Program-made: the position numbers and the translations under genes
The notes under the pieces: generated by a model
The model's input: the letters and a program-made list of their open reading frames with translations, nothing else
Database searches by the model: none
Told to the model about the DNA's origin: nothing
Assembly: GCF_036013525.1 (NCBI RefSeq)
Contig: NZ_CP107853.1
Coordinates: 10,416,001-10,480,000, forward strand
Direction: 5' to 3'
DNA: 64,000 bases
Origin: Nonomuraea sp. NBC_00507
Lineage (GTDB): Bacteria > Actinomycetota > Actinomycetes > Streptosporangiales > Streptosporangiaceae
In this document: positions 37,289 through 53,572 of the stretch, one piece after another
Numbering within the stretch: position 1 is the first letter of the stretch
Layout of the letters: each line of letters begins with the position of its first letter

Positions 37289-37300
37289 CCCATCCACACA

Positions 37301-37858
37301 GTGGATGAGGAGCGTCTGAGTTGCCATGATCTGACCGACGAGGAGTGGGAGCGGCTGGTGCCGTTGTTGCCCGTCAATCCGCGGCAGGGTGGTCGTTGGG
37401 CCGATCACCGGATGGTGATCAATGGGGTGTTCTTCCGGACGCGGACCAACGTCAGCTGGCGTGATCTGCCGCCCTGCTATGGGAACTGGAAGACCGTCTA
37501 CAACCGGCATCGCCGCTGGTCGATGGACGGCACCTGGGCGGAGATCCTGGACGGGTTACAGGCTGGATGCGATGCGGAGGAGGGTGCGGACTGGACGGTG
37601 TGTGTGGATTCCACCGTGGTGCGCGCCCACCAGCATGCCGCCGGAGCGCACCTGGCGCTGCCGCCCGATCGCGACGATGGTCAGTCCTGGCCAGCATGGG
37701 GACAGCCCGTACTTCCGGCAACCCCGTCGAACGCTGCGTGAACAAGCTCCGCAACAACCGGGCGGTGGCCCTGCACACCAAAAAACGCGAGCGAATCTAC
37801 CAGGGCACCATCGACGTCGCCTCGATCAGGATCTGGCTCCGTGACCCAACTCCGTGAT
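37301..37858 (+). mobile_element. IS5-family element remnant (transposase internally deleted)
   Basis: The first frame from 37301 encodes a normal IS5-type transposase N-terminus: DLTDEEWERLVPLLP, WRDLPPCYGNWKTVYNRHRRW and the first catalytic Asp in VCVDSTVVRAHQHAAG. At about 37680 this breaks down. From about 37715 a different frame encodes the family C-terminus: NPVERCVNKLRNNRAVA, with the catalytic Glu, and YQGTIDVASIRIWLRDP, ending at 37857. Roughly 300 bp carrying the middle of the DDE domain is missing and the frame is shifted, so the enzyme is dead. TGATCCACAGGACA at the right end looks like an IS terminal repeat; I cannot find its partner at the left end or target duplications. Confidence 0.8.
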
Positions 37859-37968
37859 CCACAGGACACGCCCTCGGCCCTGCTGAGCAAATGGCCGCTT
37901 TATGTCCGGTAGATGCCCTGGTTCACCCATGTCTCCACTCGCACACTCGTGCCGTGAACCTCCAGCGA

Positions 37969-40323
37969 ATGATCCGGATATTACACATCACGACCCTCTC
38001 CCTCCTGATGGTCGCCTCCTCAGCGGTGCTCTGGGCAGGGGCGACGCCGGCCCAGGCCGTCAAGGGAGCCAGCCCGGTGGCCGACGGCACGTACGGTTTC
38101 GTGGCGAAGGTGAACGTCGGCGAGACGCACAGCTGCACCGGAGCCCTCGTCAGCCCGCAATGGGTGATCACCGCCACCAGTTGTTTCGCCTCCCAAGGGC
38201 AGTCCGTCACGAGCGGAGCGCCGAGGACGGCGACGACGGTGACGGTCGGCAGGACGGATCTGTCCGGTACGAGCGGGCGGGTGCTGCCCGTGGAATGGAT
38301 CCACCCGCACCGCGACCGGGACGTCGTGCTGGTCAAGCTGGCGCTGCGAGCAGTCGGCATCACGCCTGCCGTGGTCGGCTCCGCCGTTCCTGCCGCGGGG
38401 GACGCGCTGCAGGTCGTGGGCTATGGACGAACGGCTGAGCAGTGGGCGCCCAACCGGGTGCATGCCGCGCCGGTCGTGGCGGGGGCCGTGGACGCCGGCT
38501 CGTTCGGCTGGACCGGGGCGAACGGCAGTGACGTGAGCGCCTGTCAGGGGGACGCGGGCGCGCCGGTGCTGCGCACGAGCGGGGGCCGCGCGGAGCTCGT
38601 CGGGCTCAGCTCCGGCGCGGGCCAGGGAGGCTGCCTGGGCGCGGCCGGCGACGGGGCGCGCGGGGGCGATGCGGCGCGGGTGGACGACCTGGCGAGCTGG
38701 ATCCGCACGGTGGCGATCGAGCCCACCACGTCCTTCGCACAGTACGGCGGCAGCGTGACGGGTATCGGCGGCTATGACATGGATGACAACCGTGATCAGG
38801 CGGTGGCCTTCGATTACGACCATTCGGGAAAGCTGGATCACCTGCTGCTCTACCGTCCGGGCTCGCAGATCGTCTTCATCGTCAAGCGGAGGACGGACGG
38901 CACCTACGCCCCGGTCTTCTCCTCGACCACTGGTATCGGTGGCTATGACCTGAAGGACAACCGGGACCGCATCATCGCCTTTGACTACACGGGTTCGGGA
39001 AAGCTGGACCATCTGCTGCTCTACCGTCCGGGCGGGCAGACGGCCTGGATTCTCGAGCACGGTTCGGGCAACACGTTCAAAGCCGTCTTCCACAGCTCGG
39101 CAGGCATCGGCGAATATGACCTGAAGGGCGCCGAGGACCAGATCATCGCCTTCGACTACGAGCATTCGGGGAAGCTGGATCATCTGCTGCTGTACCGGCC
39201 GGGGACCGGTATGGCCCGCATTCTCCGGCACAACGGTAATGCCACGTTCACGACGGTCTTCGCCACGGCCGATGGTGGGATCGGCGGGTACAACCTGAAA
39301 GATGCCCGGGACCGCATCATCGCCTTCGATTACACGAGTTCAGGTAAGCCAGATCACCTGGTGCTCTATCGTCCGGGCGGGCAGACGGCCTGGATTCTCG
39401 AGCACGGTTCGGGCAACACGTTCAGAGCCGTCTTCAACAGCGCGGCGGGCATCGGTGGCTATGACCTGAAGAGCACGGCGGATCAGATCATCGCCTACGA
39501 CTACGAGCACACGGGCAGGCTGGATCATCTGCTGCTCTACCGTCCGGGCGGAAAGACGGCCTGGATCCTGCGGCATGGCGCGGGCAATTCGTTCACGGCG
39601 GTGTTCCACAGCTCGACCGGCATCGGTGGCTATGACCTGGAGCTGGCGAAGGACCGCATCATCACCTTCGACTTCACGAGCACGGGCGGGCAGAGCCATC
39701 TGTTCGCCTACCGTCCGGGTGACCAGATCACCTATTTCACGGGACGGGCCCTTCCGCCGGTACGGGTGGTTCCGGTCACCGTGACGCCCGTCATCGGCCC
39801 GGACTCCATCGTGGAGAGGTTCGCCTACCCCGCGCACTTCCCGCACGAATACGCGGGCACCTCCGGTCAGACCGATTGGGGTACGGAAAAGGCCGAGGAG
39901 AAGAACTTCGAGCTGATCTCCGGGAACGGCGGGATCATCTGGGTCTCGTGCAGCTCGTCCCCGGAGAACGGGGTCGGCGTGCTCAAGGTGTTCCCGGGCC
40001 TGCTGAACGGCCAGCCCGTGGTCGGCGAGCCGCACCTCGGGGTGATGGCGGTGTGCTTCAAGGTCCTCGCGCCCACGGGATGGGTGAAGCTCCGGATCCC
40101 GAACGTCTTCGAGGTTCAAGGAGACAGCCGCTCGCCGGGCGCCGGCCACGACGTGGACGCGACAGTCGTCAACGTGGAGACCGGAACGGAGCGGACCAAG
40201 CGCGTCGAACGGGACGAGAGCGAGCAGTTCGGACGCTCGGATACCACCACCTGTGACGCGAGCCACCCCGATTATCCCGAGAACTGCAGCGAGACCCTCC
40301 TGGAGCTGCGGGTCGTCAGCTGA
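37969..40323 (+). CDS. Secreted trypsin-fold pseudoprotease with six C-terminal repeats
   Basis: 784 residues, with a Sec signal ending ATPAQA (about 28). Residues 30-245 follow a chymotrypsin-type protease, but two of three catalytic residues are changed: the TAAHC histidine is Ser (ITATSCF) and the GDSGGP serine is Ala (GDAGAP). The aspartate (DVVLVKL) remains. Six repeats of about 57 residues follow, each starting GIGGYDL and containing I[IA]FDY, SGKLDHLLLYRPG and a TAWILEHG-like strand, resembling FG-GAP/lectin propeller blades. A C-terminal domain, about 610-780, with four cysteines is unassigned. A binding rather than proteolytic role is likely. The ATG at 37969 best fits the signal peptide; GTG 37954 is possible. 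Confidence 0.85.
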   Translation: MIRILHITTLSLLMVASSAVLWAGATPAQAVKGASPVADGTYGFVAKVNVGETHSCTGALVSPQWVITATSCFASQGQSVTSGAPRTATTVTVGRTDLSGTSGRVLPVEWIHPHRDRDVVLVKLALRAVGITPAVVGSAVPAAGDALQVVGYGRTAEQWAPNRVHAAPVVAGAVDAGSFGWTGANGSDVSACQGDAGAPVLRTSGGRAELVGLSSGAGQGGCLGAAGDGARGGDAARVDDLASWIRTVAIEPTTSFAQYGGSVTGIGGYDMDDNRDQAVAFDYDHSGKLDHLLLYRPGSQIVFIVKRRTDGTYAPVFSSTTGIGGYDLKDNRDRIIAFDYTGSGKLDHLLLYRPGGQTAWILEHGSGNTFKAVFHSSAGIGEYDLKGAEDQIIAFDYEHSGKLDHLLLYRPGTGMARILRHNGNATFTTVFATADGGIGGYNLKDARDRIIAFDYTSSGKPDHLVLYRPGGQTAWILEHGSGNTFRAVFNSAAGIGGYDLKSTADQIIAYDYEHTGRLDHLLLYRPGGKTAWILRHGAGNSFTAVFHSSTGIGGYDLELAKDRIITFDFTSTGGQSHLFAYRPGDQITYFTGRALPPVRVVPVTVTPVIGPDSIVERFAYPAHFPHEYAGTSGQTDWGTEKAEEKNFELISGNGGIIWVSCSSSPENGVGVLKVFPGLLNGQPVVGEPHLGVMAVCFKVLAPTGWVKLRIPNVFEVQGDSRSPGAGHDVDATVVNVETGTERTKRVERDESEQFGRSDTTTCDASHPDYPENCSETLLELRVVS

Positions 40324-40326
40324 GTA

Positions 40327-40369
40327 CTGAACGGCCGGTCGGGCGCATGAGCTCCGGCCGGCCGTTCAG
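40327..40369 (+). terminator. Hairpin after the pseudoprotease gene
   Basis: CTGAACGGCCGG (40327-40338) pairs perfectly with CCGGCCGTTCAG (40358-40369). It starts 3 bp after the stop and precedes the toxin-candidate gene by 26 bp. There is no T-run. Probably a terminator or attenuator. Confidence 0.6.
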
Positions 40370-40395
40370 CCCGTTCATTGACCACATCGACGGAA

Positions 40396-43300
40396 ATGGT
40401 GGAAGTGAATACGATTCGAGCGTTACGTGGTGGCAGGACGGCAGGGGCCATCGGCACCGTGCTCTCGCTGCTTCTCGCAGGCAGCCCCATCACCGAGGCA
40501 AAGGCGGCGGCGGACCCGCCCCCAGCACCGGTATGCGAACGTCAGGTGGTTCTGGAAGCGTGGGTGACGGGCGGCGTGAACGTGCGTCCGGCCGCCGAGA
40601 GGGCGCTGCTCGGGGACAGAGCGGCGGTCTGTGCCCTGCTCGCCGAGCTTCCCCGGCTCGTGGCGCAGGACGATCGTGAGCAGGTCGGCCGCATCAAGTC
40701 CCAGGGCGAGCCTGAGGTGGCCGCCGCCGCCAATGCCGCTCTGGTCTCGGACGACCCCAGCGCCGTGGCGAAGTTCCTCGACGGTGGCTGGGAGACCGCC
40801 CGGGAGATCGACCTGCGCGCCAGCGTGAACAAGATGAAGGCGGCCGGCGGACCGGAGGTCAAGGCTGCCGCGAACGCGGTGCTGCGCAACGGGTCGCGTG
40901 CGGACCTGGGGAAGTTCATCGAATCTGGCTGGCGGGTGCCGTACCGGATGGACCTGCGCGTGGTCGTCAACCGGGCGATGTCCGAGGGGGGCCCGCAGGT
41001 GCAGGCCGCGGCGAACCGGGCGCTCCAGGACGGCAGCCAGGAGATGCTGGAGCGTTTCGCCCAGATCGACTGGGGGGTGGCCCAGGCCCGGGACAACGAG
41101 GCCCAGACCTTGAACGATCTCCGGGCGAGCGCCGCGGAGGCGACCCGCCGCGCGGCGTTCGAGACGGTCTCCGCGGTCGCGCAGGCCGACCGTGCGAAAG
41201 CCGAGGCCGCTGCGGCCAAGAGCGACGCGGAAGAGGCGCAACGCCTCGCCGCGCTGGCCGGGCAGGAGTCGGCGGAGGCCAAGCGTCAGGCCCAACGCGC
41301 TGCTGAGGCCGCCGACCGCGCCGCGGCCGCGTCCCGGGTCGCCGTACAGGCCGCGCGGACAGCGGCGACGGCCGCGCGCGCAGCCTCTGGGGCCGCCGCA
41401 CGCGCGGCGACCGCGGCGGCGCGGGCGCACACGAAGTCGGACGAGGCGTGGGCGGCCGCGACGGCGGCAGAGCTGGACGCGGCAGCCGTTGCCAAAGCGG
41501 AGAAGCACAACCGGGACATGCAGCGGATCGGTCCGGAGATCACCGCGTTGATCTCGCCCATCAATCAGATCATCGCCGTGACCGAGCAGGCGCACGCCGC
41601 GGTCGCCGCCGCCAATTCGGCCAGGGCGAACACCGAGGCCGCCGGACGCGCGGCCGAGGCCGCCGGGCGTTATGCGGGGCAGGCCAGCGCCGAGGCCCGA
41701 AACGCGTTCGCAGCGGCCGCGCGGGCGAAAGCGAGCGCGGACCAGGCGAGGCGCGCCACCGAGGAGACGGTACGTCAGGCCGACATCGCCAAGGACGCGG
41801 CCGGAAAGGCGCGCGACGCGGCGACGCGCGCCGTGACCTACGCGGAGCAGTCGGCAAGCGCCGCGGCGAGCGCGGCCCAGCATGCGGGCGGCGCCGTCAA
41901 CGCGGCCGAGCTGGCGACGCAGCACGCGAACAACGCCTACCGCGCGGCGGAGGACGCGTTGCAGGCGGCTGAGACGGCCCAGATCGTTTACAAAGCGGCG
42001 CGTGAGGTGGACGCCGAACGACTTCAGAAGGAGCTGGAACTTGAGCTGTCCTTCGCCCGGCACATCAGCCAGAAAGCCGCCGAGGCCCGATTGGGGGAGG
42101 CTCGCGGCTTCGATGTGCCAATGGGCCAGTACCACACCCCGCAGATCGACGCGCTGATCGCCGAGGTCGCCAACGCGCCGGAGACCGAGGCCGCATCGGC
42201 GGCCCTCAAGGCGCGGGAGGTGGCCCGCTACTTCGCGACCGTGCCCGGCACGTGGACCAGTTCGGCGGCCATGACGGCTCTCGGCGAGGACGATGACCTC
42301 ATGGTCATCGAGTTCGTCAAGAGCGGACTCGCCTCCGCCGAAGAGCAGGACGACCGCACGAGGCTGACCGGCCTCATGATCACCGGCAGCGCGGCCATGA
42401 GAGCAGCCGCTCAGGACGCTCTCGACAGCGGATGGTCCGACGTCATCGAGTTCCTCAAGGACCCGGACTACCCCGAGCGACCCGCCGAGGACCGGGAGGA
42501 GGTCAACGGCATCCTTTCTGACGCCCGCAGCACCGGCCACACCCACATCGAGGAGGCGGCGAACATCGCCCTGCGTTCGAACGACCCGGACGCCCTCAAG
42601 AAGTTCCTCGATAAGGAGCACAACACCGCTTACGCGATCGACGTCCGGGCGAAGGTCGGCGCGATCGCCGGGGACGACTCTCACGGGACCGAGGTGCGCA
42701 ACGGCGCCCAAATCGCGCTGGCCGGCACGACGGCGATGCAGGTCGAGTTCCTGGAGGTGGAGCGGCACCGTGCGGCCCAGCGCGACTACGCGACCGCGAC
42801 GCACAACTACATCGCCAGTTCCTTGATGATCGAGACCTCGCAGATCGCGCAGCAGGCCGTCGACTTCGCGCGCACCGCGCAGGCTGCGGCGGCTGAGGCC
42901 CGCGGTGCGGCGGAGGAGGCCATCGGTTACGCGAACGACGCCGGCAAGGCGGCCGAGGAGGCGAAGAAGTTCGCGACCGATGCCGTCGCCCACGCCCGCG
43001 ACGCCGCCGCGTCCGCGGAACGGGCCGCCGAGGCCGTCCGCACCGCCGCCGCAGCGACCAAGCAGGCCCAGCAGTCGGCCAGGTCGGCGTCCCTCTCGGC
43101 CCGCTGGGCCCGCGCCTCGGCCGTCTCGGCGGCAAAGGACGCGGCCAGCGCCTACGCCGCCTATGACACCGCGTACGCCGCGCAAATCGCGGCCGGCAAG
43201 AGCGCGTCCGAGGCGGCTCGCATCGCCGCGGAAGTGTTCGAGACTTATCGGCTCGAGGCCGAGGGACATTTGCGCGAGCTCAAGAGGGAGTTGAAAGAGC

Positions 43301-44478
43301 ACTGCGAGAATGCACCCAAACTCGGCAACCCTGGATACCACGACTGCGACGCACGCGCTGAAGAGATCCTGAACGACCCCAAGGGGCCGCTCCACGATCC
43401 GGACGGCTTCGCCAAGGACAACATCGAGCACTGCAAGAGGCAGTTCGTCGGCAAAGCCCAGGACGCCTGCATGTCCATCGTCCTGAGCCCGATATTCTCC
43501 TTCGCGGCAAGGGAAATCGGTAACCGGGAGACTGACGCTCAACGCCTCGCCGAAGAGTACATAGCTCTGACCGGCATGGACCTGATCAACGCCGCCTCCC
43601 AGTACGGCTTGGTCGGCGATTGCAAGAACGCCCTCAAGGGCGGTGTCGCGGATGCGGCGCAGTCGGTCACGGACTGCCTCACTGGAGCCCTGGAACTGTC
43701 CGAAGATCCCGACTGGGACGAGTATGCGTCCCAGTGGAGGGGGACCTTCGTGGAGTCGCACGTCCCGGAGGAACTTCGGTTCGGCGAGTACAACTCGATC
43801 TGGGGAACGATGTACCTGCTCGCGCGCCAATCTGATCTATCCATCCTGTGGGCGACCCGCGAGACCGAGCTGGCAACGTCGATACTGCGCACTATTCCGA
43901 TCGGATGCATCCAGGAAGGCGGACACTGCCCGTTCGAGGACGCGGCGCGCCAGCTCAAGGACGTGAGCGAGACCATCAAACGGCTCAACAACCAGGGCTA
44001 CATCGTGGACGAGTCCGGACGGGTGCTCGATGCGAACGGCCTGCCGATCGCGACTCTGCCACCGGTCACCGATCTGGAGAAGTGGGCGAACTACACCGTC
44101 GAGAGCGGTCTGCACGACGACCTCGCGGCCCTCGAACAACGTCTCAGCCTGCTGTACACGCAGCAGTTCGGCCTGCCCATGGCGCCCCCGGCCTGGCACC
44201 TTGAGACGCAGCTCGCCTATCGCGTCGCCACGCGGGAAGTGGCGCTACGCGAGAACACGCTACGGCTTGTCATGAACAATCCGGGCGGTGTCTGTGACGC
44301 GGTGCCGATCGATGGCACCGGACCTGATCAGCGGCGCCAGGCCGTGGCAGGATGCATCCAAGCCGTCAAACTGCTGCTTCCGGCCGGCACGACCATGATC
44401 ATCCACTACCCGGACCCGGACAATCCGGCAGAGCTGCTTGAAGTCACCGTGCGTGGCGTCGGCCGCTGGCTGGACTGA
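40396..44478 (+). CDS. ALF-repeat secreted protein with C-terminal DddA/SCP1.201-like deaminase domain
   Basis: 1360 residues. A Sec-type signal ends near SPITEAKA. ALF repeats at about 60-230 (AANAVLRNGSRADLGKFIESGW) are followed by long Ala-rich coiled coil, a second ALF block (about 620-800), more coiled coil and a Cys-containing region, the layout of actinobacterial polymorphic toxins. The last 95 residues match the SCP1.201 deaminase family, which includes the double-stranded-DNA cytosine deaminase DddA: His1268-x-Glu1270 (HLE), MNNPGGVC with Cys1300, then AGC with Cys1320 and LLPAGTTMIIHYP. The usual short spacing between zinc cysteines is stretched to 19 residues. No immunity gene follows. 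Start ATG 40396 (TTG 40378 possible). Toxin function is inferred. Confidence 0.82.
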   Translation: MVEVNTIRALRGGRTAGAIGTVLSLLLAGSPITEAKAAADPPPAPVCERQVVLEAWVTGGVNVRPAAERALLGDRAAVCALLAELPRLVAQDDREQVGRIKSQGEPEVAAAANAALVSDDPSAVAKFLDGGWETAREIDLRASVNKMKAAGGPEVKAAANAVLRNGSRADLGKFIESGWRVPYRMDLRVVVNRAMSEGGPQVQAAANRALQDGSQEMLERFAQIDWGVAQARDNEAQTLNDLRASAAEATRRAAFETVSAVAQADRAKAEAAAAKSDAEEAQRLAALAGQESAEAKRQAQRAAEAADRAAAASRVAVQAARTAATAARAASGAAARAATAAARAHTKSDEAWAAATAAELDAAAVAKAEKHNRDMQRIGPEITALISPINQIIAVTEQAHAAVAAANSARANTEAAGRAAEAAGRYAGQASAEARNAFAAAARAKASADQARRATEETVRQADIAKDAAGKARDAATRAVTYAEQSASAAASAAQHAGGAVNAAELATQHANNAYRAAEDALQAAETAQIVYKAAREVDAERLQKELELELSFARHISQKAAEARLGEARGFDVPMGQYHTPQIDALIAEVANAPETEAASAALKAREVARYFATVPGTWTSSAAMTALGEDDDLMVIEFVKSGLASAEEQDDRTRLTGLMITGSAAMRAAAQDALDSGWSDVIEFLKDPDYPERPAEDREEVNGILSDARSTGHTHIEEAANIALRSNDPDALKKFLDKEHNTAYAIDVRAKVGAIAGDDSHGTEVRNGAQIALAGTTAMQVEFLEVERHRAAQRDYATATHNYIASSLMIETSQIAQQAVDFARTAQAAAAEARGAAEEAIGYANDAGKAAEEAKKFATDAVAHARDAAASAERAAEAVRTAAAATKQAQQSARSASLSARWARASAVSAAKDAASAYAAYDTAYAAQIAAGKSASEAARIAAEVFETYRLEAEGHLRELKRELKEHCENAPKLGNPGYHDCDARAEEILNDPKGPLHDPDGFAKDNIEHCKRQFVGKAQDACMSIVLSPIFSFAAREIGNRETDAQRLAEEYIALTGMDLINAASQYGLVGDCKNALKGGVADAAQSVTDCLTGALELSEDPDWDEYASQWRGTFVESHVPEELRFGEYNSIWGTMYLLARQSDLSILWATRETELATSILRTIPIGCIQEGGHCPFEDAARQLKDVSETIKRLNNQGYIVDESGRVLDANGLPIATLPPVTDLEKWANYTVESGLHDDLAALEQRLSLLYTQQFGLPMAPPAWHLETQLAYRVATREVALRENTLRLVMNNPGGVCDAVPIDGTGPDQRRQAVAGCIQAVKLLLPAGTTMIIHYPDPDNPAELLEVTVRGVGRWLD

Positions 44479-44563
44479 GCCTGCCAGACGCATGCGGATG
44501 GTTCCGTAGCGAACTGGCCGACTTGAGATATGCGCCGTCCCGGCGTCAACCGGTGTTCTCTCC

Positions 44564-44597
44564 GCTCACCAGGTAGCGTCCATCCTGCCTGGTGAGC
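44564..44597. terminator. Hairpin between convergent genes
   Basis: GCTCACCAGG (44564-44573) and CCTGGTGAGC (44588-44597) form a perfect 10-bp stem with a 14-nt loop, midway between the deaminase gene and the convergent NACHT gene. It could terminate both. The 169-bp gap contains no credible immunity gene. Confidence 0.5.
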
Positions 44598-44647
44598 GCT
44601 TGCCCATGGAGCGCCGGGCAGTGCCGAAGGCGATCAGCGCGCGCCAG

Positions 44648-47251
44648 CTAACGACCTTCAAGCGGCTGACCAGCTAGTTCGCTGGACAACCCCAGATAAC
44701 GACTGTCGCCCTCGGACGGGGTCAGGAAGTCCTGGAGTTCGCGGTGCCGGAATTGGTAGGTGGCGCCGCTGACGCGCAGCAGCCGTGCCTCGCAGGCCCA
44801 GTCGAGAAAGGTCCACAGCCGCAGCGGAAGCACCCCACGCGCGGCCGCGATGATCAAGCCGATCATGGTGCGGGACCAGGCGATCGCGCCAAAGGCGAGT
44901 CCGAACGTCACCCCGCCGACGACCGCGCACGCCAGCGACGTGAGGACGCCCTGATGCATGACGAACACGAGAAAGGCGGCGACGCCGCCGATGAGGCCGA
45001 AGGCCACGCCGATCAATGGGTTGCGGTGGAGGGCCTCTCGCGGATGGGCCAGCTCCGCGTCCTTGCTCCAGCCCCCCGTGGCGATCTTGAACACGATCCC
45101 GAGGGCGAAGGCCAGGGTGAAGGCCCCCATGACCTCCGCGGCCAGTGCGACCGGGCCGGCGCCGACGAGGCGCAGCGGCGGCAGCCCGGTGAGGGCGCCG
45201 CACAGCCCGAACCCCAGCAGGGTGACCGGCTCGGCGCGGACCGCCTCGGATACGGTCATGCGCTCGGCTCCCCTCCGCGCGGCGGCGGTCAAGCCGATGA
45301 CCGCTCCGAACACCGAGCCCCCGGCCGCCCCCGCGGCGATGGCGAAACCAGGACCGAAGACCCCGCCTCCGGTCAGCACGAGTCCGGCCAGGCCGCAGAG
45401 CACGCCGATCGGGCTGCCCGCCAGAGCGCCGAGCAGACCCCCGATCACGCGCCGCCTGCGAGGGACGTTGGTCCGCCCGCCGGCGGCGGCCGGCCACGGC
45501 GACAGCGACAGGCCGGTGGCGATGGCCACCCAGCTCCCCATGAGCGCCAGGGTGAGCCCCTCGCCCAGGTCGAGCGAGTCGCGCAGGTCACCGGGGCGAT
45601 CGGCCGCCGACCCCGCCCAGAACGCCAGCATGGCGATGACGGCGAAGATCGCACAGCACAGACCGTGCAACGCCCGGACCCGGCGCCGGCCACCGATCGG
45701 CCACAGCAGGTGCGGGACGATGTCGATCGGTGTCAGACCGGGCGGCGGCCGATCCGTCTCGGCGGTGTGGGCAGCCTGCCACCGCAGGTGGGAGGCCAGG
45801 TTCTCCAGCCAGGATCGCACCTGTTCGGGACGGTACGGAGCGCCGTGGGCGGTGCGTGGGGTGAGTTCGGTCGCCGCCGGGACGTACGCGTCGAGCAGCC
45901 TGCGGGCGATCCGCGCCGCCGCCACTCGAGGGTCGGGGTCCGGGTCGGCGTCGAGCAGCTCGGCCGGGTCGGCGCCGGACTCCACGGCGGTCACGGTCAG
46001 CAGCAACCGCCAGGGGGTGGCCAGGGCGGTGTGGACGGCCGTCCCCGACGGTCCGGACAGTGCCGCGTGGATGCCGTCGCGGTGGGTGTCGCAGGAATGG
46101 CCGTCCGGCCAGCGGGTGCGCAGGTACGCATTGATCTGTTCGATGGTCAGGTCATGCAGATGGATCCGGGTGGCGTTGTCGAGCCCGCTGCGTGCTTCGG
46201 CCAGCTCGGTGTAGCGGCCGGCTCGGCAGGTCACGACGACCGCCCCCGGCCGCCGTCCGGAAAGGTCGCTGTACCGGTTGAGCTCGGTCAGCAGGCCGAT
46301 CGCCCGGCGAGGCGTCCCCATGGACGGCTCGGGGTCCAGTTCGTCCAGACCGTCCAGCACCGGCAGCACCTGGCGGTCCCGCACCAGCCGATCCGCGTCC
46401 TTGGCCGCGAGCCCGAAGTCCTGCACCAGCTGTTCGGCCAGCCATGGTTCGAACGGGCTTCCCAGGGTCCATCGTGCGGCGTTCAGGCGTACCGGCACCA
46501 TCTGCCGGTGACCGGGTCGTCCGCCGGTGGTCAGCAAGGGCTCCAGCAGCTGCAGCACCAGTTCGATGGCGAGCACCGTCTTGCCCGCTCCTGACTCGCC
46601 CACGACCAGCAGGCGCTGCGGGTGCAGACCGCCGAAGAACTCGCCGATCGCGTGCAGGTCGGCACCGGTGCCGACGTCGTGGCGGATCAGGTCCGCGTGC
46701 GGCCCGAAGGAGACCGGCGCGATGCTGTAGCCTCCGAGCAGCCCTTTGCGCGCCCTGTCCTCTTCCCGGGCCACCCGACGCGCCAGGAGATCAACGGCCG
46801 GGTCCGGCCCGAGAGGACCGGTGGTTTCCGCGATCCCGGCCGCGACCGCCGGCGGCTCCGGCCCGACCGCCGAGGACGTTCGCCGCTCGCCGCCGGATGG
46901 TGTACGGGTGTCCGGCTCGGCCAAGGCGGTCCTGGCCGCGCGCCAGCGTTCGAGTTCGCCGGGAATCAGCTCGGCTGGATAGTCGCGGTAACGGAGGCAG
47001 GCGGTGACGAAGGCCTTCACGAAATCCCACCGCGGCAGCCTGTCGGTCTGCCGGAGAACGTGTGAGGTCGTGCTCTTGGGCAACGCGTCGATCGTGACTC
47101 CGTCCGAGGTCACCGTCTGGCCGCCGAGAGACCGCAGCCTGCTCAGGGACGGCTCGCCCGCCCACTGTTTGAGACGGACCAGCGACCGGACGAAGTCCGC
47201 GGCGCTTCCGGCCTCGGTGGGATCGGGCGGGCAGGGGTGGTCTGCGGTCAT
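44648..47251 (-). CDS. NACHT-type STAND NTPase with helix-turn-helix N-terminus and membrane C-terminus
   Basis: 867 residues. The N-terminus (PSLSRLRSLGG, then LPKSTTSHVLRQTDRLPRWDFVKAFVTACL, about 35-85) is the helix-turn-helix-like segment common in actinobacterial NACHT proteins. The NTPase has Walker A GESGAGKT (218-225), Walker B QVLPVLDGLDEL (about 295) and sensor TCRAGRY. From about 540 to 800 come eight or so hydrophobic glycine-rich segments. A winged-helix-like end YQFRHRELQDFL follows. This suggests a switch that oligomerises at the membrane on ligand or stress sensing, possibly forming pores. ATG 47251 overlaps the stop of the small middle gene (ATGA). Third gene of the STAND trio. 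Confidence 0.85.
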   Translation of the reverse strand: MTADHPCPPDPTEAGSAADFVRSLVRLKQWAGEPSLSRLRSLGGQTVTSDGVTIDALPKSTTSHVLRQTDRLPRWDFVKAFVTACLRYRDYPAELIPGELERWRAARTALAEPDTRTPSGGERRTSSAVGPEPPAVAAGIAETTGPLGPDPAVDLLARRVAREEDRARKGLLGGYSIAPVSFGPHADLIRHDVGTGADLHAIGEFFGGLHPQRLLVVGESGAGKTVLAIELVLQLLEPLLTTGGRPGHRQMVPVRLNAARWTLGSPFEPWLAEQLVQDFGLAAKDADRLVRDRQVLPVLDGLDELDPEPSMGTPRRAIGLLTELNRYSDLSGRRPGAVVVTCRAGRYTELAEARSGLDNATRIHLHDLTIEQINAYLRTRWPDGHSCDTHRDGIHAALSGPSGTAVHTALATPWRLLLTVTAVESGADPAELLDADPDPDPRVAAARIARRLLDAYVPAATELTPRTAHGAPYRPEQVRSWLENLASHLRWQAAHTAETDRPPPGLTPIDIVPHLLWPIGGRRRVRALHGLCCAIFAVIAMLAFWAGSAADRPGDLRDSLDLGEGLTLALMGSWVAIATGLSLSPWPAAAGGRTNVPRRRRVIGGLLGALAGSPIGVLCGLAGLVLTGGGVFGPGFAIAAGAAGGSVFGAVIGLTAAARRGAERMTVSEAVRAEPVTLLGFGLCGALTGLPPLRLVGAGPVALAAEVMGAFTLAFALGIVFKIATGGWSKDAELAHPREALHRNPLIGVAFGLIGGVAAFLVFVMHQGVLTSLACAVVGGVTFGLAFGAIAWSRTMIGLIIAAARGVLPLRLWTFLDWACEARLLRVSGATYQFRHRELQDFLTPSEGDSRYLGLSSELAGQPLEGR

Positions 47252-47934
47252 CCGCGCCCCGTCCTCACCAGCGACCATTCGAACCTCGCCGCGCCGCGTC
47301 GCGGCCACCGGCCATCCACGCAGGTCCCCGCCAGGGTCTGAACATGACGACACTCCATCAGGAAGTTGCGCGCCTCGTCGGACTCCACCAGGTCCCGCCC
47401 GACCGCGATGGGAACGAATCCGTGCCGCGGAATGTAGACCCATCGGCCGCGGTCCCAGTCGTAAGGGTCGAACCAGTGGTGGCGTACCGTGCCGGACACC
47501 CGTACCTCCGCTCCGGTCCTGGTCAGGACGAACGAGCCCTGTGAGCGCAGCAGGCTCATCCTGCTGACGTAGAAGAGCTCCGTACCGATGAACGCGTTGA
47601 TCCGCGCGTCCCAGTGATCGTGCAACCAGGTGGAGGCGCCGTCGCCCAACCGCCCGGCCTCCCGCGCGAGCTGCCGTTCGAACCGGCGCTGGTTCTTGCG
47701 CTCGGCCTTCTTGATCACTCTGAACGAGCGCAGCCAGCGCAGTGACATCGTCCTGGAGGCGCCGGCGCCGTCCATGAAGTGTTCCAGGAAATCGGAGGCC
47801 ATCGGGTGGAGCTGGCGGCCGCCCTCCACGATCGAGCGGAACAACTCGACCAGTTCCGGGACGGGCCTGCCCGTCCGCCGCCGCAGACCTCGCAGGAACA
47901 TGCTCGCCTTCTCCATGATGGGGTCCAGGGTCAC
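47248..47934 (-). CDS. Unknown 228-residue protein, middle gene of the STAND trio
   Basis: No family recognised with confidence. The N-terminal half is basic and helical (RSFRVIKKAERKNQRRFERQLARE, about 70-95). The C-terminal half is beta-rich with WFDPYDWDRGRWVYIP (about 152-167), a pattern seen at the ends of various actinobacterial effector-like proteins, and a terminal cysteine pair (MECRH, GTCVDG). No signal peptide or membrane helix. GTG 47934 overlaps the WD40-STAND stop (GTGA), and its own stop overlaps the NACHT ATG, so all three proteins should be made together. It could be an effector, adaptor or ligand of the two NTPases. Confidence 0.75.
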   Translation of the reverse strand: MTLDPIMEKASMFLRGLRRRTGRPVPELVELFRSIVEGGRQLHPMASDFLEHFMDGAGASRTMSLRWLRSFRVIKKAERKNQRRFERQLAREAGRLGDGASTWLHDHWDARINAFIGTELFYVSRMSLLRSQGSFVLTRTGAEVRVSGTVRHHWFDPYDWDRGRWVYIPRHGFVPIAVGRDLVESDEARNFLMECRHVQTLAGTCVDGRWPRRGAARFEWSLVRTGRG

Positions 47935-50900
47935 GGACACGTCTGGCGGTACTTCTCCTGCGGCACGAGATTCTCCCATTCCTCGCGGGTGAGAGACCGG
48001 CCCGCGTTGGCGCACGCCGCGGCGACCAGGTCGGGGGGCCTGCGGACGTTCCACAGCCGCGCGCTGTTGTCGCCCGCGACCGTGGCGACGATGGTCCCGT
48101 CCCGAGCGTAGGCGAGCGCGGTCACACCGCTCTTGTGCCCGACCATCGGGGCGCCGAGCCGCCGGTAGGTCCGCAGATCCCACAGCTGCACATCCCCGCC
48201 GGTCAAGCCGGTGGCGAGAACCTGACCGTCCGCGCTGAACGCGAGGCTGTACGTTACGTGGTCCTCGACGATCAGACCGACGCCGACCGAGTGGCGGCCG
48301 GGCACGTCCCAGAACCGGACGCTGTTGTCGGAGGCCGTGAGGGCCAGCCTGCCGCCATCGGGACTGAACGCCAGGGCGTTGACGAACCCGCCAGCGCCCT
48401 TGAACGGCGGGCCCGGGATCTCGCGGCCGGTTGTCACCTCGAAGAGCCGTGTCCGGTTGTCCCAGCCCGTGGTCGCCACCATCGCCCCGTCGGGGCTGAT
48501 CGCCATCCCCGTGATGATGTCGGTGTGGCCGGGTACGCGGATGCGCGTCCCGGTCTCGCGGCGGCGCGCGATGTCCCAGAACACGATGGCGTCGTCCTCG
48601 TTCACGGCGGCGAACCTGCCGTCGGGACTGATCCTGGCCACACCCTTGAGCGCCGGGTCATGGGCTATCTCGCGGCGCCCCGCGACGTCCCAGAGGCGCA
48701 GGCCGTCCGCGTGGGACGTCAGGAGCATCCGCCCGTCGGGGGTGAATTCGACGTGGTACACCGCGCGGCGCGTGCCCTTGGGACTGAGTGGCGGGCCGAG
48801 GGGACGCTGGGTGGCCACGTCCCACAGCTGGATCGCGGGGTTCTTGTCGTCGGGCACACCGGCGGCCAGGATTCGTCCGTCAGGGCTCAGCGCGACGGAC
48901 GACATCGCGGGCATGGGGGTCCCGAGCTGCTGGAAAACCTGCGGGTCGGCCAGCCGTACGTCGCCGTCGTCGCTGGCGGCGGCCAGCAGCTTTCCGTCCG
49001 GGCTGAACGCCACGCCGTTGACACTGCTGAAATTGTCGGCGAGCACGAACACCTGTTGCCGGCTGACCGTGTCCCACACGACGGTGCGACCGCTGTCTCC
49101 GCCGGTGACGATCCGTGTGCCGTCGGGGCTGAAGGCGATCGACTCGTAACCGGCGGTGCGGTCCTTGAGCCTGCCTGTCTCCTTATGCGTGGCCATGTCC
49201 CAGAGGCGCCCCGTCCGGTCCCAGCCCACGGTCGCGAGGGTGGTGCCGTCCGGGCTGATGGCGAGATCGGTGACGGATTCGGTGTGTCCTGCGAAGGGGG
49301 CGCCGAGCCGGCGGGAGGTGGCGGTGTCCCATAGTCGTACGGTGTTGTCCCCGCCGGCGGTTGCCAGGATCTTCCCATCCCGGCTGAACGTCACCCTGGT
49401 GACGGAGGTCTCGTCGCGCGACTTGTCACCGGGGTGGCGTATGGGAGTGCCGTGCGGGCGGCGCGTGGTCGCGTCCCACTGCCGGACGACGCCCTTGCTG
49501 TCTCCGGTCACGATGGTCTTCCCATCCGGGTTGTACGCGAACGCCCTCACGACCGACTCCTGGTCCAGCGGGGCGCCCACCTCGCGGTGGGTGGCCACGT
49601 CGTAGAACCGGACGGTGCTGAGACACGCCGTGGCCAGCGTACGGCCATCGGGGCTGAAGGCCAGCTTGGTGCCGCTCAAGCAGCTGTACTTCGGCCGGGT
49701 GATCGGGGCGCCGAGCTGCCGTCGCGATGCCGTGTCCCAGAGCCGTACGGTCTCGTCGTCGCTTCCTGTCGCGATGATCGAACCGTCAGGGCTGAACACC
49801 AGGCCCGTGACGCCTCGCGTGTGCCCGGTGAGGATCCCGCGGCCGGTGCGGGTGGCCGCGGACAGCACGCGGTTGCGGGCCTCGTCGGTGTCAGCGATTC
49901 GCCACGCCGCCACAGCCAGCATCGACGACAGGGCGGAGTCGCCGGTGACCTCGCTCTGCGCCGCCAACTGGCGGGAGCTCGCCACGCTGCGTTGCCGATC
50001 AGCCTCGTTCGCCGCATCGACGGCGTTGCGCGCCGCGTTGACGGCGGCGCCGGCCGCGACGAGGGCGAGAGCCGACAGCGCCCCGAGCCCTGCGATGACG
50101 AGACGCCGACGGCGGCCCGCCCGCCGTGCCGCCTCGGTCGACGCCGCGAGGAATCTCTCCACGGTCGGACCGGGCGGCGGGAAGCTGTCGGGGTCGCGGT
50201 CCCAGCGGGGCCGGCTGTCATCGACCGCCAGCAGACGGGCGCCCCGGTAGAGGAAGGCGGGGTCGCGGTGGTTCTCGGCCCACTGGGCGGCGTCCGCGGC
50301 GAGCTGGTCGTACACCGCCTGTGCGGTCATGTCCGGTTCGAGCCACTGCCGCAGGGTGGGCCAGGCGGTCAGCAGGGCGTCGTGGGCGATCTCGACGCTG
50401 TCCTCGTGCAGCGTGAGAAGGCGCCGGTCGGCGAACGCCGAAAGCAGCTCCTCGACCTGGGCACGCCGCTCCGCCGACTGCGCGGCCGCGGCCGCGTGGA
50501 CCTCGGCCGGCGTCACCCGGCGCCGCCCCAGCCGCCCGCCCGCGGTGATCAGCGTCATCCGCCGGAAGATCCGGAGCGCGGCCTTGCTGTCCTCCGGCGA
50601 CAGCCGTCCGAGGACCTCGTCGGCCGTGCGCCGCACGGAGTCGCGGACCCGGCCGGATTCCTCATAGCCCCGGAGGGTCAGCCGGCCGTCCTCACGTCTC
50701 TCCCAGGTGTTGCGCAGCGCCTGCGAAAGCAGCGGCAGGGCCCCGGCCTCGTAGCGATCACCGGCGGCCTGGTCGACGCGTAGTTCGCCCAGGATGGTCT
50801 CCACCAGACCGGGCTCGATCTCCAGGCCCACCGCGGCCGCGGGGCCGGTGATGGCCAGCCGGAGGTCCGACTCCGTCATCGGCTCGACGATGACCTGGCC

Positions 50901-51590
50901 GTCCTGGATGGCCTCGGCGAACTGCGGGTAGGCCGCGCAGCGGTCCCAGTAGTCCGCACGTACACCGATGATCACTCCGGCGCCGGACGGGCCTTCGGTC
51001 AGCGCGTGCAGAGCCCTCACGAACGATTGGCGCTCCCGCTCGTCGGTCACCAGAGTGAACAGTTCCTCGAACTGATCGACGACCAGGACGAGACGGCGGT
51101 CCGGTGAGAAAGCCTCTGACACCATCTGCTTCGGATCGTCCCGCAGTTGCTCGTGCACCGTTTCGACGTGCCCGCCGAACGCCGCCATCCAGCCTTCGGC
51201 AAGTGCCTGTAACGGCCTCGAGGTCGGCGTGATGAGCAGGCGCGGCCAACGCTGCGATCCGGCGAGCGGCAGCAAGCCCTTGGTCAGCGCCGGCATCAGC
51301 CCCGCCCGTAACAGCGACGACTTGCCCACACCCGAGGCGCCCGAGACCAGCAGGATGGACCCGTGCTCGTCCAGGCGCGGGCCCAGGCGCTCGAGCAGAC
51401 CGTGCGTCGCCCGCGCGCGTCCGAAGTAGAACTCGCTCTTCTCGGTCTCGAACGGTGCGAGGCCTTGGTAGGGGCACACGTCGTCCGAATGGTCGGACGG
51501 CAGCGGGACACCGCCACTCCGGGGCGGCCGGAGACCGGTCGGCGCCTGTGCCCGCGGCGGTCGGTGGCCGCCCCCGTCACCCTCACCCAT
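47931..51590 (-). CDS. nSTAND1-type NTPase with membrane helix and 14 WD40 repeats
   Basis: 1219 residues. The opening CPYQGLAPFETEKSEFYFGR is the conserved start of the nSTAND1 class. Walker A SGASGVGKSS (about 83-91) and Walker B LVLVVDQFEEL (about 170) follow, then a winged-helix region. A single hydrophobic helix (LVIAGLGALSALALVAAGAAV, about 505-525) leads to a short coiled coil. About 14 WD40 repeats (about 590-1195; FSPDGxxxATGxxDxTVRLWD) could make two seven-bladed propellers sensing a partner. ATG 51590 is my choice, although its SD is poor; TTG 51677 would add 29 residues. First gene of the trio, divergent from the NB-ARC regulator remnant. Confidence 0.88.
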   Translation of the reverse strand: MGEGDGGGHRPPRAQAPTGLRPPRSGGVPLPSDHSDDVCPYQGLAPFETEKSEFYFGRARATHGLLERLGPRLDEHGSILLVSGASGVGKSSLLRAGLMPALTKGLLPLAGSQRWPRLLITPTSRPLQALAEGWMAAFGGHVETVHEQLRDDPKQMVSEAFSPDRRLVLVVDQFEELFTLVTDERERQSFVRALHALTEGPSGAGVIIGVRADYWDRCAAYPQFAEAIQDGQVIVEPMTESDLRLAITGPAAAVGLEIEPGLVETILGELRVDQAAGDRYEAGALPLLSQALRNTWERREDGRLTLRGYEESGRVRDSVRRTADEVLGRLSPEDSKAALRIFRRMTLITAGGRLGRRRVTPAEVHAAAAAQSAERRAQVEELLSAFADRRLLTLHEDSVEIAHDALLTAWPTLRQWLEPDMTAQAVYDQLAADAAQWAENHRDPAFLYRGARLLAVDDSRPRWDRDPDSFPPPGPTVERFLAASTEAARRAGRRRRLVIAGLGALSALALVAAGAAVNAARNAVDAANEADRQRSVASSRQLAAQSEVTGDSALSSMLAVAAWRIADTDEARNRVLSAATRTGRGILTGHTRGVTGLVFSPDGSIIATGSDDETVRLWDTASRRQLGAPITRPKYSCLSGTKLAFSPDGRTLATACLSTVRFYDVATHREVGAPLDQESVVRAFAYNPDGKTIVTGDSKGVVRQWDATTRRPHGTPIRHPGDKSRDETSVTRVTFSRDGKILATAGGDNTVRLWDTATSRRLGAPFAGHTESVTDLAISPDGTTLATVGWDRTGRLWDMATHKETGRLKDRTAGYESIAFSPDGTRIVTGGDSGRTVVWDTVSRQQVFVLADNFSSVNGVAFSPDGKLLAAASDDGDVRLADPQVFQQLGTPMPAMSSVALSPDGRILAAGVPDDKNPAIQLWDVATQRPLGPPLSPKGTRRAVYHVEFTPDGRMLLTSHADGLRLWDVAGRREIAHDPALKGVARISPDGRFAAVNEDDAIVFWDIARRRETGTRIRVPGHTDIITGMAISPDGAMVATTGWDNRTRLFEVTTGREIPGPPFKGAGGFVNALAFSPDGGRLALTASDNSVRFWDVPGRHSVGVGLIVEDHVTYSLAFSADGQVLATGLTGGDVQLWDLRTYRRLGAPMVGHKSGVTALAYARDGTIVATVAGDNSARLWNVRRPPDLVAAACANAGRSLTREEWENLVPQEKYRQTCP

Positions 51591-51785
51591 GGCCTCATTC
51601 TGGCCAATCGCGGCGAGGCCGATCAATCGAGATACCCGCGAATCGCGATCATGCGGCCCCACCTTCAGTGCGTCCAATTCCGTTCGCTTTCGTCCGACCG
51701 TGGTCTGAACAGCCGGGACGCGCCTTTGATGGACCTGCGGATCTCAGCGGCCAGGGGGCGACGAGACGGGGGGTGTCGACCGACC

Positions 51786-53126
51786 GTGATCACTGGTAAC
51801 AGACTTTCGACGGAGTGGCCCGACGCCGGGCTGCCCTTGGGAACGCTCCTGCGCAGGTGGCGGGAGCGGGCGTTGCTGACACAGGAGCAACTGGCCCAAG
51901 GGGCCGGCCTCAACGTCCGGACGGTTCGCCGGTTGGAGAGCAGCGGGCTTCAGCAACCTCGCATGGAATCGATCCGGCTGCTGGCGGAGGCGTTGGGGCT
52001 GGACGGGGAAGAGCGCGCGACGCTGGCCGCCGTCGCCCGGAGCCTGCCGGCTTCCCCTGAACGCGATGATCCGGCAGGCACACCGCCGGCAGCGGTGACC
52101 GTTCCCCGGCAGTTACCGGCCGGTGTGGCGGCGTTCGTCGGCCGAGAGCGCGAACTGACGGCCTTGGAGGATTACGAGAACGCGAACACGGCAACCGTCG
52201 TCGCCATCGACGGCATGGCCGGAGCCGGCAAGACGGCGCTGGCGGTTCATGCCGCCCATCGGCTCGCACCCCGGTTTCCCGACGGGCAGTTGTTCGTGAA
52301 CCTCCACGGCCATACCCAGGGAATGACACCGGTCGATCCGGGCGACGCGCTGGCCCGCGTGCTCAGAGCACTCAGCGTTCCCGGCGAGCGTGTCCCCGAG
52401 CATGTCGACGACCGCGCCGCGCTGTACCGCAGTGTGGTGGCCGATCGCAAAGTCCTGATCGTGCTGGACAACGCCGCCGATGAAGATCAGGTCTGCCCGC
52501 TGCTGCCCGCCGGCCCGGGCTGCCGGCTGATCGTCACCAGCCGGCGCCGCCTGATCGGCCTCGACGACACCCGGACCTTGTCGTTGGACGTCCTGCCGCG
52601 GGAGGAGGCGGTCGCCCTGTTCACCCATACGGTTGGGCGGGAGCACGTCATGGACGCGCCGGGGGGTGTCCTGACGGAGACCGTGGAGCGGTGCGGGCTG
52701 CTCCCGCTCGCCATCCGCATCGCCGCCGTCCGGCTTCAGGCGCGTCCCACCTGGAGCGTGAGACATCTGCTTGACCGGTTGAACGATGATCGACTGGCCG
52801 AGCTGACGGTCGGGCGGCACAGCGTCACCGCCGCCCTGGATCTGTCCTATCAGCGGCTTTCCGAGGACCAGCGGCGTGTGTATCGGCTGCTGGGCTCGCT
52901 CGTCGGCGCCGAGTTCGGCGTTGACGAGGCCGCCGCCGTACAGGACACGACCGTGGTGCGGGCCAGGCGGGAACTGGACCAACTGCTGGACGTCCATCTC
53001 CTGCAAGAGCCCGCCCCCACCCGGTACCGGTTCCACGATCTGGTCCGCGACCATGTCTCGGCGTTGTCGCCTGGCGGGGCTCCTCGACGAGACAGAGATC
53101 CACCTGGTCCCGGTCCTGCTCGGTGA
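51786..53126 (+). pseudogene. XRE/NB-ARC regulator, 3'-truncated
   Basis: An XRE helix-turn-helix (LGTLLRRWRERALLTQEQLAQGAGLNVRTVRRLE, about 18-51) is followed by an NB-ARC ATPase: FVGRERELTAL, Walker A DGMAGAGKTALA, Walker B KVLIVLDNAAD, LIVTSRRRL, GLLPLAIRIAA and the winged helix ending RYRFHDLVRDHV. Family proteins continue with several hundred residues of TPR repeats; here homology stops at about 53068, where the frame runs into unrelated sequence and ends at 53126. The start is GTG 51786. It is divergent from the WD40-STAND gene and may once have regulated or accompanied the trio. A truncated product could still bind DNA. Confidence 0.78.
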
Positions 53127-53168
53127 GGGCCGCCGGCTCTTTGAACACCTCGGCGCCGACGGCTGTAC
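53069..53168 (+). pseudogene. RibD/dihydrofolate-reductase-like C-terminal fragment
   Basis: In frame +1 relative to the NB-ARC frame the sequence reads LAGLLDETEIHLVPVLLGEG and RRLFEHLGA. That is a characteristic C-terminal segment of the small 'dihydrofolate reductase family' (RibD_C) proteins common in actinobacteria. There is no start or upstream domain: it is fused directly to the broken NB-ARC gene, and is itself cut off before its last strand. It marks one deletion or recombination junction. Confidence 0.7.
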
Positions 53169-53572
53169 GCCCCGAGCTCCCACAGCGAGGCCGGCTCCAG
53201 CAGCGTCGCAGCCCCATCTGATGAGCGCGAGGTCGTAGGTGCAGTCGAGCGCGCCGCCGTACTCGGGAGAGAAGGCCGTCGGCAGGCGCCGGTAGTAGTT
53301 GATCGATCGGCGCAGCAGCGGGAACAGGACGTCGCGGAGCACGTCGGTGTCCATGGTGTGCCGGTAGGACAACCAGACGTTGTGCAGGGCCCAGGTGAGG
53401 TTGCCGATCTCGGGAGCCGTGCGCGTGCCGTACGAGGAGCTGGGCCGCAGTGCCGTGCGGCTGGGGTTGGAGCTGAAGGAGGGGTGGGCGCGCAGCGGCT
53501 CGGAGCAGCACGCCGTGTTCGGCACCCACGTCGTGGTGCGCCAGTCCGTCGCGCCACCCGCCCGCGAACCGG
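53165..53572 (-). pseudogene. Glycoside hydrolase (GH95-like) fragment
   Basis: On the minus strand this stretch encodes GNLTWALHNVWLSYRHTMD, VLRDVLFPLLRRSINYYRRL, FSPEYGGALDCTYDLALIRWGC and, after a frame change, ATLLE. These are consecutive helices of a GH95-like (alpha/alpha)6 barrel, with an internal piece missing between YYRRL and FSPEY. Neither the start nor the end of the gene is present. It is bounded by the reductase fragment on one side and the stop of the alginate-lyase-like gene (53573) on the other. Confidence 0.65.

What the first reader, a model, noticed from the sequence alone, without database searches (positions are those of the whole stretch)
40396..44478. Large ALF-repeat protein ending in a DddA-like deaminase with an expanded zinc loop
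The C-terminal 95 residues carry HLE (His1268, Glu1270), NNPGGVC (Cys1300) and AGC...LLPAGTTMIIHYP (Cys1320), the order and spacing of the SCP1.201/DddA deaminase family. In DddA the two zinc cysteines are two residues apart and in other members a few; here 19 residues separate them, including a PIDGTGPDQRRQ insert next to the active site. That could alter the substrate: double- or single-stranded DNA, RNA, or a nucleotide. The long ALF and coiled-coil stem resembles polymorphic toxins, whose tips are released into target cells.
Basis: partly seen in the sequence, partly recalled or inferred. Interest (0 to 1): 0.82.

Follow-up and report, generated by a model that had tools for sequence, protein, structure and literature searches.

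The report
Umbrella toxin with fixed deaminase tip
A soil bacterium carries a two-gene "umbrella" toxin particle whose tip looks like a DNA-editing enzyme; the particle type is already known, but here the tip stays nearly unchanged across genera, has no recognised antidote gene beside it, and has lost a key metal-binding residue in some relatives.

Summary
In detail: the ORF, the four named residues and the 19-residue gap between the cysteines are there, and the tip passes Pfam's DddA-like cut-off. A middling model (pLDDT 73) aligns best with DddA-type deaminases. UmbC1 of S. coelicolor already carries a DNA-mutating deaminase with a 10-residue loop, so the long loop is an extreme, not a new kind; NCBI names 17 of 27 homologues DddA-like. 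Unusual: (i) the tip core has the lowest dN/dS of the UmbC segments compared; (ii) no downstream ORF is shared by more than 3 of 15 loci and Imm1 was not found in 13 genomes, whereas Imm1 follows 10 of 10 annotated Streptomyces-group relatives examined; (iii) the zinc histidine is Gln or Asn in 4 of 28 proteins, at least 3 changes on a tree. Most likely an umbrella toxin with an active, divergent deaminase; a retired, non-catalytic tip is the serious rival.

The parts
37969..40323 (+). umbAB: degenerate trypsin domain, repeat (lectin/propeller-like, by eye) region and UmbB-like C-terminal domain in one gene (longest ORF from 37891)
   Evidence: Trypsin PF00089 E 2.7e-18; 8w20_C E 1.1e-37 and 9oee_A E 5.7e-30; catalytic-His position Ser/Thr in 14 of 14 UmbA examined, by motif; upstream of umbC in the window and in 13 of 14 loci
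39796..40320 (+). UmbB-like adaptor domain fused at the C-terminus of UmbA
   Evidence: Profile A5 best PDB hit 8w20_B, whole-sequence E 0.025, over 31 residues; 37% identical to an UmbB-like domain elsewhere in this genome, which hits 8w20_B at E 3e-05; [VL]E motif in 14 of 14
40396..44478 (+). umbC: ALF-repeat umbrella scaffold with C-terminal deaminase-like tip, 1360 aa
40531..41085 (+). first ALF set (half of the UmbC ring); boundaries rounded by me
   Evidence: PF03752 matches
42166..42855 (+). second ALF set (other half of the ring); boundaries rounded by me
   Evidence: PF03752 matches
43321..43977 (+). pre-tip region, the segment with the highest dN/dS; no HINT domain detected
   Evidence: no Pfam match here
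43978..44475 (+). DddA-like deaminase tip (residues 1195-1360)
   Evidence: PF14428 over cut-off; hhalign 99.0%, E 3.2e-18 to Streptomyces DddA-like tips; model and fold match
44197..44205 (+). His1268 (presumed zinc ligand, not conserved in all relatives) and Glu1270 (presumed catalytic, invariant)
44293..44355 (+). Cys1300 to Cys1320 with the 19-residue insert 44296-44352

Best explanation
This is an umbrella toxin locus of the umbAB-umbC type. Shown by sequence: UmbC has the ALF ring and coiled-coil stalk, and the upstream gene is a degenerate trypsin domain with a repeat region and a fused UmbB-like adaptor. Inferred from the S. coelicolor system: the two proteins are secreted, UmbB-like domains dock the lectin-bearing UmbA on the ALF ring, lectins bind glycans on related actinobacteria, and the tip at the end of the stalk enters the target cell. 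The tip is a DddA-like (SCP1.201/BaDTF1) deaminase domain; most likely it is active and mutates target DNA by cytosine deamination like the UmbC1 tip, using His1268, Cys1300 and Cys1320 for zinc and Glu1270 for catalysis. The long loop probably reshapes the substrate face, since in DddA this loop carries the residue that enters the DNA. Activity and substrate are not shown here.
Confidence: 0.6

Rival explanations
1. The tip is a deaminase-derived domain that no longer catalyses. It has been kept as a fixed structural, binding or delivery piece of the particle; the two invariant cysteines may form a disulfide in this secreted protein instead of holding zinc.
For: His lost by at least 3 changes on a tree of 34 rows, with no new His or Cys seen by eye in the L034 tip; L034 tip dN/dS 0.18-0.40 against the other 13, so still constrained; tip more identical than the body in 175 of 190 pairs of 20 proteins; no recognised immunity gene.
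Against: Glu1270 and both Cys are invariant in 28 of 28; His is kept in 24 of 28; tip identity in the 51 pairs with one non-His member lies below the trend (mean residual -2.3 points against +0.9 in 136 His-His pairs; P0019 was too short to be included), and L034 has higher dN/dS in the tip than in ALF1-4 in 6 of 13 pairs, as expected of recent decay; absence of adjacent immunity is not unique: UmbC2 of S. coelicolor has none identified (PMC11062931, passage) and the second umbC of this genome has none adjacent.
Confidence: 0.25
2. The tip is an active deaminase, but not on double-stranded DNA: the expanded loop fits single-stranded DNA, RNA or a nucleotide.
For: The DddA loop residue that enters DNA has no counterpart in the 19-residue loop (PMC10442228 passages); ssDNA-targeting SCP1.201 deaminases are named in a title (PMC12983258, search listing only).
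Against: UmbC1, the nearest relative of known activity found here, also lacks the aromatic and still mutates chromosomal DNA.
Confidence: 0.3
3. An ordinary polymorphic toxin of which only one tip variant has been sampled.
For: The named members come from a few genera; another UmbC in the same genome carries another tip.
Against: Of 297 family genomes, the 5 with a ring at least 81% identical all carry this tip; in L035 and L037 the trypsin-lectin part of UmbA is replaced while the tip is kept; tip at least as conserved as the ring, the reverse of the second UmbC type in the same family.
Confidence: 0.1

Closest known systems
UmbC1 of Streptomyces coelicolor, Umb1 particle (PDB 8w20/8w22; PMC11062931)
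   Same: ALF ring, two coiled coils, C-terminal DddA-like deaminase; profile match of the tips E 8.2e-09; UmbA and UmbB partners
   Different: UmbC1 has a HINT domain, a separate UmbB and Imm1 (UmbD1) directly downstream and a 10-residue inter-cysteine loop; here no HINT found, UmbB fused to UmbA, no Imm1 found, loop of 19
UmbAB fusion proteins (PMC11062931, section 10 read)
   Same: trypsin-like domain and UmbB-like domain in one chain
   Different: here the order is trypsin, repeats, UmbB; the second locus of this genome has UmbB first
DddA of Burkholderia cenocepacia (6u08, 8e5d/8e5e)
   Same: deaminase fold, HxE and two cysteines
   Different: cysteines two residues apart with a DNA-entering Phe; type VI secretion; no ALF ring
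Streptomyces DddA-like toxins (P0031-P0034, L023, L024, L042-L048, L050)
   Same: PF14428-type tips; P0031-P0034 sit on ALF scaffolds with HINT
   Different: loop of 5 in 8 of the 10 plasmid loci with a readable loop, 9 and 10 in L045 and L046; Imm1 next door wherever annotated

Membership tests
Umbrella toxin particle (Umb) | UmbC: ALF repeats in two sets with two coiled coils | tested here: met
   PF03752 8 stretches; 8w20_A E 3.9e-56 over 26-971
Umbrella toxin particle (Umb) | UmbA: trypsin-like domain without a complete catalytic triad | tested here: met
   by motif the catalytic His is Ser/Thr in 14 of 14; GDAGAP in place of GDSGGP in the window, but L034 keeps the Ser
Umbrella toxin particle (Umb) | UmbA carries a lectin domain | tested here: inconclusive
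   six GIGGYD-type repeats seen by eye; no Pfam lectin or propeller match; not modelled
Umbrella toxin particle (Umb) | UmbB adaptor encoded nearby | tested here: met
   fused to UmbA; direct profile match weak (E 0.025), through an intermediate sequence 37% identical E 3e-05
Umbrella toxin particle (Umb) | twin-arginine signal on UmbC | not tested
   no predictor available; by eye RGGR and a hydrophobic stretch, no clear twin arginine
Umbrella toxin particle (Umb) | assembled, secreted particle that inhibits target growth | not testable with these tools
   needs purification and growth assays
DddA-like deaminase (PF14428) | score over the curated cut-off | tested here: met
   28.1 bits, cut-off 25; 8 of 27 homologues have no precomputed PF14428
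DddA-like deaminase (PF14428) | HxE motif and two zinc cysteines | tested here: met
   present in the window; across the clade Glu and Cys 28 of 28, His 24 of 28
DddA-like deaminase (PF14428) | deaminase fold | tested here: met
DddA-like deaminase (PF14428) | cytosine deaminase activity | not testable with these tools
   no experiment
DddA-type double-strand recognition | aromatic in the inter-cysteine loop and Met three residues after the second Cys | tested here: not met
   no aromatic in the loop; Ala at +3; UmbC1 also lacks them
Classical polymorphic toxin | tip varies between close relatives | tested here: not met
   tip core has the lowest dN/dS; tip more identical than body in 175 of 190 pairs
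Classical polymorphic toxin | immunity gene beside the toxin | tested here: not met
   no ORF shared by more than 3 of 15 loci within about 8 kb downstream (5.6 kb in L034), and that one lies 2.9-7.6 kb away; Imm1 in 0 of 13 genomes, control 2 of 2; an unrelated immunity family elsewhere is not excluded

The most novel reading that the evidence does not exclude
A fixed-tip umbrella particle in which a DddA-like deaminase has been retired from catalysis: the fold, the catalytic Glu and a cysteine pair are kept under selection, zinc binding is being lost repeatedly, no antidote is needed, and targeting diversity sits only in the lectins.
Probability: 0.22. Interest if true: 0.7.

Novelty: new variant of a known kind. 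Interest (0 to 1): 0.42.

Why it matters
Umbrella particles are described as varying in both lectin and toxin (PMC13274773, abstract and section 13 read). Here is a lineage, patchily present across genera and strains, in which the trypsin-lectin part of UmbA differs between members while one tip is kept, with no recognised antidote. It is a natural set for asking whether the tip must be enzymatic at all. If the tip is active, its loop is the longest between zinc cysteines among the family members I examined and would be useful for learning what that loop does to substrate choice.

Tried and rejected
A new kind of zinc site: rejected, because loop lengths run 2, 5, 9, 10, 18-19 in relatives (no loop could be read in L049 and P0039 by my pattern).

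First structure model (15 close sequences, pLDDT 55.2) and its Foldseek search: uninformative; replaced by a 20-row alignment with distant relatives.

phmmer of the tip alone against the PDB found nothing useful, and phmmer of the UmbB-like region alone found nothing; both needed profiles or an intermediate sequence.

'Tip is the most conserved part' as a flat statement: softened. Over 60-residue windows, 301-360 and 781-840 are as conserved as the tip (88, 89 against 87, 88%), mean dN of the whole tip equals that of ALF1-4 (0.127, 0.126), and in the closest relative, L026, the tip core (90%) is the least conserved segment.

Relaxed selection after loss of the histidine: not clear either way (numbers under the first rival).

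Missing immunity as strong proof of inactivity: weakened, because of the second-type UmbC loci only L063 and L064 share a downstream candidate, the own copy L068 and L066 have none directly downstream, none was evident in L067, and L065 ends too close to judge.

My first downstream comparison had L032 in the wrong register; repeated with it corrected, same maximum of 3 loci.

PADLOC: no match at E 0.001 for the two umb genes or two neighbours. NCBIfam: nothing relevant. Phages: no match to a Streptomyces DddA-like tip. PF14428 in 396 genomes of the phylum: 2, the own one included.

Searches for print on this lineage: 'Nonomuraea' with 'umbrella' gave one unrelated paper; 'umbrella toxin' with 'UmbC' gave the two umbrella papers, whose main texts do not contain the word Nonomuraea (supplements not read); 'DddA-like', deaminase, zinc, Streptomyces gave none; a five-term loop search gave nothing relevant by title; 'TOD6' with deaminase gave none. 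That 9oee is UmbA4 I did not verify (one search found no PDB code).
Full report
Observation. Pfam finds ALF repeats (E 2.4e-32, 8 stretches) and DddA-like PF14428 over its cut-off (28.1 against 25 bits; 34.0 for the tip alone). Nineteen residues separate Cys1300 and Cys1320.

What the whole thing is. Against solved structures, the only match at E 0.01 is 8w20_A (E 3.9e-56, residues 26-971). 8W20/8W22 are the deposited Umb1 particle of S. coelicolor (PMC11062931, passage), and the long chain is its UmbC1. The gene directly upstream, 37891-40323, matches in its trypsin part chain C of the same particle (E 1.1e-37) and 9oee_A (E 5.7e-30). By motif the catalytic histidine of trypsin is Ser or Thr in 14 of 14 UmbA proteins examined, as umbrella biology expects: UmbA binds UmbB and does not cut (PMC11062931, section 6 read). 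The C-terminal 175 residues are UmbB-like: the profile's best PDB match is 8w20_B (E 0.025 over 31 residues), and a 37%-identical domain in the second umbrella locus of this genome matches 8w20_B at E 3e-05. UmbA-UmbB fusions are known (PMC11062931, section 10 read). So this is a compact two-gene umbrella locus.

The same genome has a second UmbC at L017 6400-10302 (G000:C1:3316399-3320301) with another tip, and an UmbB-first UmbBA gene on the other strand.

Relatives. A search of 5.8 billion proteins for the tip within proteins of comparable length gave 27 proteins: Nonomuraea, [Actinomadura] parvosata, Jiangella, one Kribbella, and a few without a species name; 17 of the 27 are named DddA-like double-stranded DNA deaminase toxin by NCBI. 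A scan of one genome per species found 14 loci. UmbA lies upstream in 13 of 14 and in the window; in the 14th, L032, the contig ends inside umbC. In L035 and L037 only the trypsin part (44%) and the UmbB part (78%) of UmbA align with the window's, nothing in between: there the trypsin-lectin part differs while the tip is kept.

The loop. It is 19 residues in 26 and 18 in 2 of 28 members of this clade, 5 in most Streptomyces relatives, 9 in L045, 10 in L046, 10 in UmbC1 and 2 in DddA. UmbC1's tip introduces widespread C:G to T:A mutations (PMC11062931, section 8 read). A long loop is therefore compatible with activity. In DddA the loop residue Phe1375 enters the DNA and F1375A and M1379A are inactive (PMC10442228, passages); the window loop has no aromatic residue and Ala at the Met position, but so has UmbC1.

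What is unusual. (1) The tip core (1256-1360) is 80-91% identical to the window's in the 12 Nonomuraea-type and Jiangella UmbC compared and 65% in Kribbella, against 53-68% and 31% for the pre-tip; L026, nearest to the window, is 90-98% throughout with the tip core lowest. Median dN/dS is lowest in the tip core (0.179; whole tip 0.235; ALF1-4 0.270) and highest in the pre-tip (0.531) over 91 pairs of 14 UmbC, L032 left out as truncated. In 175 of 190 pairs among 20 of the 28 proteins (those over 1150 aa) the tip is more identical than the body. As a control, the second UmbC type of the same family has last-150-residue tips 48-64% identical where the first ring half is 77-85%, over 13 of 15 pairs of six loci; the other two pairs are near-identical copies. 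(2) In 297 family genomes, 5 rings are at least 81% identical to this one and all 5 have this tip; 7 further rings are at 45-46%. (3) No ORF within about 8 kb downstream of umbC (5.6 kb in L034) is shared by more than 3 of 15 loci, and that one is 2.9-7.6 kb away on either strand. Imm1, listed with SCP1.201 deaminases (PMC3482391, passages), was not found in 13 genomes, with 2 of 2 positive controls. Imm1 lies next to the tip in 10 of 10 annotated Streptomyces-group plasmid loci; I fetched 11 of the 15 such records hit, and one of the 11, L044, is unannotated. (4) The zinc histidine is replaced in P0015, P0019, P0025 (Gln) and P0027 (Asn), at least 3 changes on a tree built without the tip (34 rows, quick method, some long branches). 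In L034, of the same species as P0015, the DNA reads CAG at that codon.

Against over-reading. UmbC2 of S. coelicolor has no identified immunity protein either (PMC11062931, passage), and of the second-type UmbC loci only L063 and L064 share a downstream candidate. Glu1270 and both cysteines never change in the 28. The His losses are a minority and could be recent decay; those members score lower in tip identity than the trend, and none of the four has a precomputed PF14428 match.

Mobility. A genome of the same species (G287) shows no match to this tip or ring type. Its DNA matches the window to 37290 at 97% and again from 53422 at 94.5%, with 5.8 kb of other DNA in place of window 37291-53421. 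The umbrella genes thus sit in a strain-variable stretch together with a NACHT gene and an nSTAND1-WD40 gene.

Mechanism and verdict. Known steps of umbrella biology (secretion, UmbB-mediated docking, lectin recognition) are taken from the S. coelicolor work; only the parts list is shown here. I hold an active divergent deaminase most likely (0.6), with a retired tip (about 0.25) as the rival worth testing. It is a new variant of a known kind, of moderate interest.

Noticed in passing
window 37291-53421: About 16 kb that is replaced by 5.8 kb of other DNA in a genome of the same species (G287); holds the umb genes, a NACHT NTPase and an nSTAND1-WD40 protein.
   Followed up: partly
L017 3620-10302 (G000:C1:3313619-3320301): Second umbrella locus of the same genome: umbC with a different tip and a divergent umbBA gene with UmbB at the N-terminus.
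   Followed up: partly
window 37301-37741: Short IS4/5-type transposase piece (DUF4096) just upstream of umbAB.
   Followed up: no
L030 1759-4256: UmbA of the second Nonomuraea solani copy is split into two ORFs (547 and 278 aa), suggesting a broken gene.
   Followed up: no
L063 and L064, 33-518 bases after umbC: A 161-aa ORF directly downstream of the second-type umbC, a candidate immunity gene, absent next to the own copy L068.
   Followed up: no
L045, S. clavuligerus pSCL3: DddA-like toxin with a 9-residue inter-cysteine loop and Imm1 next door.
   Followed up: no
P0039 (Streptomyces anulatus, 149 aa): Short DddA-like relative whose HxE glutamate reads Lys (HAKAK), seen by eye; possibly a decayed copy.
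   Followed up: no
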